The position numbers were made by a program, and so were the translations under genes. Below the pieces are notes generated by a model. The model searched no databases. It saw nothing but the letters and a program-made list of their open reading frames with translations, and was not told the origin of the DNA. This document shows positions 4,312 through 5,961 of a DNA stretch of 64,000 bases, piece by piece (within the stretch, counting starts at the first letter, position 1; each line of letters begins with the position of its first letter). The stretch comes from Haloarcula hispanica ATCC 33960. GTDB lineage: Archaea > Halobacteriota > Halobacteria > Halobacteriales > Haloarculaceae. The stretch is from assembly GCF_000223905.1 (NCBI RefSeq), contig NC_015948.1:806001-870000 (forward strand), read 5' to 3'.

Positions 4312-4370
4312 GCAGACCCACCGACAGCACCCGTGTGCCGGCCTGGCACGCGATTTCGGCTTCGAAAGCG

Positions 4371-4378
4371 CTTTTAGG
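4371..4378 (+). promoter_or_regulatory. TATA-like box for rpl7ae operon
   Basis: CTTTTAGG preceded by a purine-rich GAAAGCG, which resembles a BRE. A start about 25 bases downstream (around 4400) would give a leader of about 125 nt, unusually long for a haloarchaeal mRNA, and would include the whole folded element at 4411-4502. Confidence 0.5.
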
Positions 4379-4410
4379 GCCGGTGGCACAGAATGGGGTA
4401 CAGCCTGCGC

Positions 4411-4502
4411 CGAGTTGATGATGCTCCCAGCCTTTTCAGGATACACACCATCACGGTGTGACGGGCCCCGCGGCCCGGACACGGCGGGGGAGCCTGAGCT
4501 CG
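4411..4502 (+). promoter_or_regulatory. Structured leader of rpl7ae: candidate kink-turn / box C-D-like element
   Basis: Bases 4411-4415 pair with 4498-4502 (four Watson-Crick pairs and one G-U). Bases 4423-4428 (GCTCCC) pair perfectly with 4488-4493 (GGGAGC). Between these stems TGATGA (4416-4421, box C-like) faces CTGA (4494-4497, box D-like), the arrangement that forms tandem sheared G-A pairs bound by L7Ae. Two further hairpins lie inside: CACACC/GGTGTG at 4444-4460 and CGGGCC/GGCCCG at 4462-4477. The internal loop has about one extra base per strand compared with a textbook kink-turn, so the fold is inferred, not proven. The element ends seven bases before the Shine-Dalgarno sequence. 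Confidence 0.5.
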
Positions 4503-4508
4503 CGCGCA

Positions 4509-4516
4509 GGAGGTGA
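4509..4516 (+). promoter_or_regulatory. Strong Shine-Dalgarno of rpl7ae
   Basis: GGAGGTGA eight bases before the ATG at 4525. It decides the start: an in-frame ATA-ATG extension upstream would bury it. Such a strong site after a long leader contrasts with the mostly leaderless genes nearby and fits translational control. Confidence 0.75.
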
Positions 4517-4524
4517 ACATACAA

Positions 4525-4887
4525 ATGCCAGTATACGTAGATTTCGACGTTCCCGCGGACCTCGAAGACGACGCCCTCGAGGCGCTCGAGGTCGCCCGGG
4601 ACACAGGCGCTGTAAAGAAGGGTACAAACGAAACGACCAAGTCCATCGAGCGCGGCTCCGCCGAGCTCGTCTTCGTCGCCGAAGACGTCCAGCCCGAGGA
4701 GATCGTCATGCACATTCCGGAACTCGCCGACGAGAAGGGTGTCCCCTTCATCTTCGTCGAGCAGCAGGACGACCTCGGACACGCCGCCGGGCTCGAAGTC
4801 GGCTCGGCCGCCGCAGCCGTCACCGACGCCGGTGAGGCTGACGCCGATGTCGAGGACATCGCCGACAAGGTCGAGGAGCTTCGGTGA
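4525..4887 (+). CDS. rpl7ae: Ribosomal protein L7Ae
   Basis: A 120-residue protein, essentially the Haloarcula L7Ae. It is a large-subunit component that also binds kink-turns in box C/D and H/ACA guide RNAs and in RNase P RNA. The RNA-binding signature K-K-G-T-N-E-T-T-K and the [10 protein letters not shown] loop are both present. The C-terminus differs from the H. marismortui sequence I recall at a few acidic positions, which suggests a sister species. It is first gene of an operon with rps28e (11 bases downstream), rpl24e and ndk, and is preceded by a structured leader with box C/D-like motifs. Confidence 0.96.
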
Positions 4888-4898
4888 GGTGACCTCGG

Positions 4899-5126
4899 AT
4901 GAGCGCTGAGGAATCCGAAAGCAGCGGTTCCACGCCCGCCGAGGTTATCGAAGTCGTGGGCCGGACGGGGATGCACGGCGAGGCCATGCAGGTCAAGTGC
5001 CGCATCCGCGAAGGCGAGAACCAGGGGCGCATCATCACGCGCAACGTTCTCGGTCCGGTCCGCGAAGGTGACGTGCTCCAGCTCCGCGAGACGGCTCGCG
5101 AGGCCGACACCATCGGAGGGCAGTAA
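4899..5126 (+). CDS. rps28e: Ribosomal protein S28e
   Basis: A 75-residue small-subunit protein with an OB-like fold. The family core is clear: [16 protein letters not shown] and the C-terminal L-R-E-T-A-R-E-A. The first dozen residues are a Ser/Glu-rich extension usual in halophiles. It sits 11 bases after rpl7ae and two bases before rpl24e, so it is surely co-transcribed. A GAGGTGA sequence just before the ATG can serve as ribosome binding site. Confidence 0.95.
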
Positions 5127-5128
5127 CC

Positions 5129-5497
5129 ATGCCCCGGACACGCGAATGTGACTACTGCGGCACAGACATCGAACCCGGCACGGGCACGATGTTCGTCCAC
5201 AAGGACGGCGCGACCACGCACTTCTGTTCCTCGAAGTGCGAGAACAACGCCGATCTGGGCCGCGAGGCCCGCAACCTCGAATGGACCGACACTGCCCGCG
5301 GCGAAGCCGGTGCGGTCGAGACAGAGGTTGAAGACGAAGCTGAAGAGGCGGAAGCAGAGCCGGCAGCTGATGCCGAGGAAGCTGACGCAGACACCGACGA
5401 GGAAGCGGCTGCGGACGAAGCTGACGCCGACGACGCTGACGAGACCGACGCGGACGAAGACGTCGAGGACGAAGAAGCCGAGGAGGCTGAAGCGTAA
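5129..5497 (+). CDS. rpl24e: Ribosomal protein L24e with long acidic C-terminal tail
   Basis: A 122-residue protein. Residues 1-60 are the L24e zinc domain, with C-x2-C (Cys7, Cys10) and a second C-x3-C (FCSSKCEN) that bind one zinc. After about residue 61 comes a roughly 60-residue tail made almost only of Glu, Asp, Ala and Thr. From memory the H. marismortui protein ends at 66-67 residues, so the tail is an expansion, and its DNA is a run of GAC/GAA/GCT-type codons that looks slippage-prone. Its stop overlaps the ndk start by one base (TAATG), so the tail is in frame and not an artefact of a missed stop. Confidence 0.93.
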
Positions 5498-5961
5498 TGT
5501 CCGAGCACGAGCGCACGTTCGTGATGGTCAAGCCCGACGGCGTCCAGCGCGGCCTCATCGGGGACATCGTCTCCCGTTTTGAGGACCGCGGCCTGAAGAT
5601 GGTCGGCGGCAAGTTCATGCAGATCGACCAGGAGCTCGCTGAGGAGCACTACGGCGAGCACGAGGACAAGCCGTTCTTCGACGGGCTCGTCGACTTCATC
5701 ACCTCCGGTCCCGTGTTCGCGATGGTCTGGGAAGGTCAGGACGCGACCCGGCAGGTCCGCACCATGATGGGCGAGACTGACCCGGCCGAGTCGGCTCCCG
5801 GCACCATCCGCGGCGACTACGGCCTCGACCTCGGTCGGAACGTCATCCACGGCTCCGACCACGAGGACGAGGGCGCAAACGAGCGCGAAATCGAGCTGTT
5901 CTTCGACGAGGACGAACTCGTCGACTGGGACCAGATCGACGCGCCCTGGCTGTACGAGTAA
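5497..5961 (+). CDS. ndk: Nucleoside diphosphate kinase
   Basis: A 154-residue enzyme that moves the gamma phosphate from ATP to NDPs through a phosphohistidine. It has the N-terminal [13 protein letters not shown] and the catalytic V-I-H-G-S-D with His118. Length fits the family. It is last gene of the rpl7ae-rps28e-rpl24e-ndk unit, a conserved archaeal order, and is followed at once by an intrinsic-type terminator. Confidence 0.96.

What the first reader, a model, noticed from the sequence alone, without database searches (positions are those of the whole stretch)
4400..4516. Box C/D-like kink-turn candidate in the leader of rpl7ae: possible autoregulation by L7Ae
Seen: two stems (4411-4415 with 4498-4502; 4423-4428 with 4488-4493) enclose TGATGA on one strand and CTGA on the other, right before a strong Shine-Dalgarno sequence and the gene for L7Ae, the protein that binds exactly this motif. 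The leader is about 125 nt if the TTTTAG box is the promoter, long for a haloarchaeal mRNA. Known: L7Ae binds kink-turns, and self-binding in the 5' UTR has been reported in another archaeon as I recall. Inferred: excess L7Ae would close the leader and shut off its own operon, which also holds rps28e, rpl24e and ndk. The internal loop has about one extra base per strand, so it is not a perfect kink-turn.
Basis: partly seen in the sequence, partly recalled or inferred. Interest (0 to 1): 0.74.

Follow-up and report, generated by a model that had tools for sequence, protein, structure and literature searches.

The report
Kink-turn-like switch before L7Ae gene
The mRNA of the ribosomal protein L7Ae begins, in all 170 salt-loving archaeal leaders compared, with the same folded RNA hairpin carrying the kind of site L7Ae binds, right where ribosomes must land, so the protein most likely shuts off its own production; this kind of control is known from other archaea, but the haloarchaeal form is larger and differently built.

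Summary
The motifs are at the stated coordinates, but stem I is longer (4404-4415 with 4498-4510, reaching into the Shine-Dalgarno sequence). All 170 haloarchaeal l7ae leaders examined (133 distinct, 11 of the order's 13 sampled families) carry this hairpin. 14 of 19 base pairs show changes on both sides (0/500 shuffles reach this). A covariance model finds it in 59 of 60 sampled Halobacteriales genomes and in none of 236 others of the phylum. Two basal families have instead a minimal canonical k-turn in the same place.

Best explanation: L7Ae binds its own leader and clamps a hairpin that hides the Shine-Dalgarno sequence. This is known for other archaea (Daume 2017; Huang 2019). Daume noted a Kt-b strand further upstream in Haloferax volcanii, but their 50-bp test fragment would lack the b strand found here if it lies as in the leaders sampled. 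New here: the haloarchaeal architecture (mostly a 4-nt bulge, an extra base opposite, a long GC-rich stem, a conserved apical RGGA). Binding and regulation are untested.

The parts
4363..4377 (+). BRE/TATA-like promoter (CGAAAGCGCTTTTAG), TTTTA at 4372-4376
   Evidence: TTTTA-type box 27-29 nt before the conserved TACA in 129 of 133 distinct haloarchaeal leaders
4399..4402 (+). Conserved TACA, inferred transcript 5' end; UAC 4399-4401 can pair with GUG 4513-4515 of the SD
   Evidence: T 120/124, A 122/124, C 121/124; 4513-4515 predicted mostly paired (unpaired probability 0.01-0.19); TSS not measured
4404..4415 (+). P1 (stem I / C helix) 5' strand; last pair U4415.G4498
   Evidence: 7 of the 11 counted pairs show changes on both sides, 95.7% of cells paired
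4416..4419 (+). k-turn bulge UGAU (4 nt); U4419 invariant; 3 nt (UGU, CAU, CGU, GGU) in 16 of 133 distinct leaders
4420..4421 (+). k-turn G1b A2b, forming G.A and A.G with 4496-4497
   Evidence: GA in 124/124 distinct cores
4423..4427 (+). P2 (NC helix) 5' strand, pairs with 4489-4493
   Evidence: all 5 pairs show changes on both sides, 93.2% of cells paired
4430..4432 (+). P3 5' strand GCC, pairs with GGC 4483-4485
   Evidence: 99.4% of cells paired, changes on both sides in 2 of 3 pairs
4438..4441 (+). Conserved apical-loop motif AGGA (RGGA); function unknown
   Evidence: RGGA in 131 of 133 distinct leaders, about 9% in shuffled insert sequence
4444..4460 (+). Accessory hairpin 1 inside the apical region (variable insert)
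   Evidence: sequence varies but stays complementary within the genus by eye; absent from compact leaders
4462..4477 (+). Accessory hairpin 2 inside the apical region (variable insert)
   Evidence: varies within the genus; absent from compact leaders
4483..4493 (+). P3 3' strand (4483-4485), internal-loop side GGG (4486-4488), P2 3' strand (4489-4493)
4494..4497 (+). Non-bulged strand CTGA: only GA (4496-4497) conserved, C4494 and T4495 variable
   Evidence: A4497 124/124, G4496 121/124, C4494 36/124, T4495 42/124
4498..4510 (+). P1 3' strand with one bulged base, ending inside the SD
   Evidence: SD starts 1 nt before the last P1 base in 121 of 170 leaders
4509..4516 (+). Shine-Dalgarno sequence GGAGGTGA
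   Evidence: GG and GUG predicted paired, AG free
4525..4887 (+). rpl7ae (L7Ae / eL8)
   Evidence: PF01248 E 1.1e-25; identical to the chain of PDB 1s72_F
4899..5126 (+). rps28e
   Evidence: PF01200 E 2.4e-30
5129..5497 (+). rpl24e with an acidic C-terminal tail
   Evidence: PF01246 E 2.9e-23, residues 3-65
5497..5961 (+). ndk
   Evidence: PF00334 E 3.8e-57

Best explanation
The roughly 125-nt leader of rpl7ae folds into one long hairpin. Its middle is a kink-turn-like L7Ae site (bulge UGAU; G4420.A4497 and A4421.G4496). Its closing stem P1 takes up the first bases of the Shine-Dalgarno sequence, and the very 5' end (UAC) can take up more of it. When L7Ae exceeds its ribosomal and sRNA sites it binds this turn, locks the hairpin and blocks 30S binding, so L7Ae (and possibly the genes behind it) is translated less. 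Shown here: the conserved, covarying hairpin, the invariant GA pairs, its place at the SD, its restriction to this one gene. Inferred: L7Ae binding, repression, and any effect on rps28e, rpl24e and ndk.
For: Same hairpin in all 170 l7ae leaders examined from 11 of the 13 sampled families of the order. Covariation: 14 of 19 pairs with changes on both sides, 0/500 shuffles, slid controls at most 51% paired. GA/GA core conserved at 124/124 and 121/124 although the flanking nt vary. Covariance model: 59 of 60 order genomes, one strong site each, adjacent to l7ae wherever I compared coordinates. SD abuts or overlaps P1. Basal families f8/f10 have at the same place a canonical minimal k-turn (CGU-AAU-GA-CGCGC-GGGA-GCGCG-GA-ACG) directly followed by the SD. 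The protein is identical to H. marismortui L7Ae of PDB 1s72. Published: S. acidocaldarius L7Ae represses its own mRNA through a leader k-turn, and leaders of several archaea respond in a reporter (PMC5539422); crystal structure and in-line probing of the A. fulgidus leader with L7Ae (PMC6298567).
Against: The turn is not a standard k-turn in the window: 4-nt bulge and one extra nt on the non-bulged strand. P1 is long and GC-rich and is predicted to be closed without any protein (pair probabilities about 1), unlike the weak stems on which the published OFF-switch model rests, so what L7Ae would add is unclear. Neither the L7Ae-RNA contact nor the transcript start was measured. Strong sequence conservation of P2, P3 and the apical RGGA is not explained by L7Ae binding alone.
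Confidence: 0.82

Rival explanations
1. The hairpin is a regulatory leader, but the ligand that matters is another one (another protein of the operon such as S28e or L24e, or the 30S itself through the apical RGGA and the GGCRGGGGAGC strand); L7Ae binds weakly or only helps it fold.
For: P2, P3 and RGGA are far more conserved in sequence than a k-turn needs; RGGA does not follow changes in P1 or P2, so it is kept as an unpaired motif; GGCGGGGGAGC is identical to 11 nt of the 16S rRNA.
Against: The part that tolerates least change is the bulge U plus the two facing GA, which is the L7Ae signature; basal relatives keep only the k-turn and lack the rest; the 11-nt match to 16S is short and many genera read GGCAGGGGAGC.
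Confidence: 0.12
2. A box C/D guide sRNA that overlaps the start of the l7ae transcript, with the UTR function secondary.
For: Box C-like AUGAUG and, in Haloarcula, a box D-like CUGA closed by a terminal stem.
Against: CTGA is not conserved; the box C-like strand is directly followed by a paired helix, leaving no guide; no C'/D' pair apparent; no Rfam match; the stem always abuts the SD.
Confidence: 0.02
3. A DNA element (inverted repeat bound by a transcription regulator) or chance conservation of promoter-proximal DNA.
For: It lies just downstream of the promoter.
Against: Many G-U wobble pairs in P1 (24/124 U-G at 4406-4508, 20/124 G-U at 4409-4505), a U.G/U-A/C-G step at 4415-4498 and non-Watson-Crick GA/GA sites point to RNA; arm spacing varies with inserts of 12-119 nt.
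Confidence: 0.03

Closest known systems
Autoregulatory k-turn in the l7ae mRNA leader of Sulfolobus acidocaldarius (Daume et al. 2017, PMC5539422)
   Same: Same gene, same place next to the SD, facing Kt-b and Kt-n strands with tandem G.A pairs
   Different: Here a long hairpin with about 12 bp of GC-rich C helix, mostly a 4-nt bulge, an extra nt on the n strand, a conserved apical RGGA and accessory hairpins
Archaeoglobus fulgidus l7ae leader k-turn (Huang, Ashraf, Lilley 2019, PMC6298567)
   Same: RNA stem-loop with bulge, G.A and A.G at the SD; L7Ae induces the fold
   Different: That stem is weak and unfolded without protein; the haloarchaeal P1 is predicted to be stable on its own. No Haloferax or 'halo' term occurs in that paper
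Haloferax volcanii l7ae leader as treated by Daume et al. 2017
   Same: Same order; the authors mark a Kt-b strand further upstream in their alignment
   Different: They tested about 50 bp; in every leader sampled here the b-strand GA lies 64-177 nt before the ATG, so a 50-bp fragment would lack it. Not checked on the H. volcanii sequence itself
Box C/D k-turn of archaeal guide sRNAs
   Same: RU-GA-U core and terminal stem
   Different: No conserved CUGA, no guide, no C'/D'
Yeast RPL30 (L30e) autoregulation through a k-turn in its own transcript (as described in PMC6298567)
   Same: An L7Ae-family ribosomal protein controls its own mRNA through a k-turn
   Different: Acts on splicing as well as translation, in a eukaryote

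Membership tests
L7Ae-autoregulated l7ae leader (Daume/Huang type) | Element lies in the 5' leader of the gene for L7Ae | tested here: met
   PF01248 gene at 4525; element 4399-4516, same arrangement in 170 leaders
L7Ae-autoregulated l7ae leader (Daume/Huang type) | Facing strands with tandem G.A and A.G | tested here: met
   G4420.A4497 124/124; A4421.G4496 121/124, A-A in the other 3
L7Ae-autoregulated l7ae leader (Daume/Huang type) | SD inside or directly next to the k-turn stem | tested here: met
   SD starts 1 nt before the last P1 base in 121/170, within 2 nt of it in 164/170
L7Ae-autoregulated l7ae leader (Daume/Huang type) | C helix with few Watson-Crick pairs, unfolded without L7Ae (described for the six published leaders, not shown to be required) | tested here: not met
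   P1 about 12 bp, predicted closed without protein; folding in real salt not testable here
L7Ae-autoregulated l7ae leader (Daume/Huang type) | L7Ae binds the leader and represses translation; GA mutations relieve it | not testable with these tools
   needs gel shift, RIP-seq or a reporter
Standard kink-turn (Lilley nomenclature) | Three-nucleotide bulge between C helix and the G.A pairs | tested here: not met
   Window: 4 nt (UGAU). 3 nt in 16/133 distinct haloarchaeal leaders, 4 nt in 117/133; 3 nt in basal families f8/f10
Standard kink-turn (Lilley nomenclature) | C and NC helices flank the loop | tested here: met
   P1 and P2 supported by changes on both sides in 12 of 16 pairs
Box C/D guide sRNA | Conserved box D CUGA | tested here: not met
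   CT of CTGA not conserved: 36/124 and 42/124
Box C/D guide sRNA | Guide sequence upstream of D or D' | tested here: not met
   The bases next to both boxes are in helix P2

The most novel reading that the evidence does not exclude
The haloarchaeal leader is a two-input switch: a k-turn-like L7Ae site and, separately, a conserved apical RGGA/GGCRGGGGAGC module that reads a second ligand (30S anti-SD, another ribosomal protein, or assembly state), built by enlarging the minimal ancestral k-turn still seen in the basal families; because its stem is stable without protein, L7Ae acts on an already folded RNA rather than inducing the fold.
Probability: 0.25. Interest if true: 0.6.

Novelty: new variant of a known kind. 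Interest (0 to 1): 0.42.

Why it matters
Haloarchaeal mRNAs are mostly leaderless, and a genome-wide TSS study concluded that control by structured leaders is not typical of haloarchaea (PMC4983044). This is a clear, order-wide exception with strong covariation, found in genetically tractable organisms. It gives a defined RNA and defined mutations for testing L7Ae feedback in haloarchaeal cells. It also suggests that the published H. volcanii test used a fragment without the true b strand.

Tried and rejected
Rfam at gathering and at E-value threshold: no relevant family. Box C/D sRNA: rejected, CUGA not conserved. Mimicry of 23S Kt-15: only CGA(A)GCCC of one strand is similar, not pursued. 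Identity of GGCGGGGGAGC with 16S rRNA: 11 nt, other genera read GGCAGGGGAGC, left as a curiosity. Alternative pairing of the apical CAGG(A) with the 5' CCUG or with UCC(U) of P2 (a classical riboswitch-like alternative): by inspection, RGGA does not follow changes in CCUG or UCCU, so no support. Other copies in the genome: remaining covariance-model hits are weak (20 bits or less). A second hit in genome G210 (25.7 bits) falls in sequence that reads as coding. nop5-fibrillarin leader of the same genome: no facing UGA/GA motifs seen close to the start. A simple script for k-turns in other leaders of the phylum was too unspecific (shuffles reach the score 14-33% of the time), although by eye most show (G/A)ATGA(A/T)TNATGA, a hairpin, then GAAGGAGG.

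Full report
Setting. The window carries rpl7ae (4525-4887), rps28e, rpl24e and ndk in a row (Pfam). The L7Ae protein is identical to the Haloarcula marismortui chain of PDB 1s72.

Check against chance. The leader folds at -62 kcal/mol, better than all 200 shuffles (z -3.8). I collected l7ae leaders from the genus (30 loci), 60 representatives of other genera and families of the order, and 80 named genome records. All 170 leaders (133 distinct) carry the same hairpin. On 53 representative cores (inserts shortened), the structure P1 4404-4410/4504-4510 and 4412-4415/4498-4501, P2 4423-4427/4489-4493, P3 4430-4432/4483-4485 has 95.6% of cells paired. 14 of 19 pairs have changes on both sides; no shuffle of 500 reaches this, and slid controls pair at most 51%. 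These counts include inherited changes, but the number of pair types (40 beyond the first against 27.5 shuffled) points the same way.

The k-turn register. Comparison decides it: T4419, G4420, A4421 and A4497 are invariant in 124 distinct cores and 4496 is G in 121 and A in 3. The first GA (4417-4418) is disrupted by a 1-nt deletion in 16 of 133 distinct leaders, which then have a 3-nt bulge UGU, CAU, CGU or GGU. So the tandem pairs are G4420.A4497 and A4421.G4496, the bulge is UGAU (4 nt) in the window, and the step before the bulge is U4415.G4498 (also U-A and C-G). G4423 pairs with 4493 (G-C, G-U, A-U), leaving C4494 and U4495 opposite U4422, one nt more than a standard k-turn. In one group of species (n strand AGTCGAGC; L073, L157, L160 and others) this extra nt is absent. 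CTGA as such is not conserved.

Position and promoter. A TTTTA-type box lies 27-29 nt before the conserved TACA in 129 of 133 distinct leaders, which fits a transcript start at about 4399-4402; this is inference. The SD GGAGGTGA begins one base before the end of P1 in 121 of 170 leaders and within 2 nt in 164. ViennaRNA predicts P1 fully closed, G4509-G4510 paired, and G4513-G4515 mostly paired, in the minimum-free-energy fold with the 5' end, leaving A4511 and G4512 free.

Distribution. A covariance model finds one significant site in the own genome. In a phylum sample it finds 59 of 60 Halobacteriales genomes and none of 236 others; the coordinates I compared lie directly before l7ae. The genome missed belongs to basal family f10. 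It and three genomes of family f8 have instead a minimal hairpin such as CGU-AAU-GA-CGCGC-GGGA-GCGCG-GA-ACG immediately followed by AGGUGA, a canonical k-turn with the same polarity. The haloarchaeal element therefore looks like an enlarged descendant of the widespread archaeal one.

Mechanism. Most likely translational feedback: free L7Ae binds the turn and fixes a hairpin whose stem covers the start of the SD. Shown: structure, conservation, placement, uniqueness. Inferred: binding, repression, co-regulation of the downstream genes. Caveat: the published OFF-switch model relies on stems that are unfolded without L7Ae (PMC6298567), whereas haloarchaeal P1 is predicted to be stable. L7Ae may therefore act as a clamp, or on the kinetics of folding during transcription, rather than induce the fold.

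Relation to the literature. L7Ae autoregulation was shown in S. acidocaldarius and supported for other archaea in an E. coli reporter (PMC5539422). The authors state that the H. volcanii 50-bp sequence has a potential Kt-b strand apart from one seen further upstream in their alignment. In all leaders here the b-strand GA is 64-177 nt from the ATG, so the 50-bp fragment would not contain it, provided H. volcanii follows its relatives (not checked directly). Structured leaders were called untypical of haloarchaea (PMC4983044). I found no paper in the held library describing this haloarchaeal architecture; the supplementary Text S1 of Daume et al. could not be read and may show part of it.

Unexplained. 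An apical RGGA is kept in 131 of 133 distinct leaders (about 9% in shuffled inserts), and the strands of P2 and P3 are more conserved than an L7Ae site requires. A second ligand is possible.

Verdict. It works like the known archaeal l7ae leader k-turn and is most likely its haloarchaeal variant, but in the window it does not meet the strict definition of a standard k-turn (bulge length), and L7Ae binding remains to be tested.

Noticed in passing
L220-L223 (basal families f8/f10 of the same order), about 45 nt before the start codon: Minimal canonical k-turn directly before the SD in place of the large hairpin; suggests stepwise enlargement of the element in haloarchaea.
   Followed up: partly
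4438-4441 and the same place in 131 of 133 distinct leaders: Conserved unpaired RGGA in the apical loop, not covarying with other parts; unknown function.
   Followed up: partly
4483-4493 (GGCGGGGGAGC): Identical to 11 nt of the 16S rRNA about 985 nt before the 23S start in the own genome; other genera have GGCAGGGGAGC in the leader, so perhaps chance.
   Followed up: partly
5324-5494: L24e ORF carries a tail of about 57 residues, strongly acidic (Glu, Asp, Ala), beyond the Pfam domain (residues 3-65).
   Followed up: no
own genome C3 near 1436637 (L219): nop5-fibrillarin leader of this genome shows no obvious k-turn near the start codon, unlike reports from Sulfolobus and Thermococcus.
   Followed up: partly
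L224-L239 (other genomes of the phylum): Many l7ae leaders read (G/A)ATGA(A/T)TNATGA, a short hairpin, then GAAGGAGG, a recurring form with the SD used as the stem strand.
   Followed up: partly
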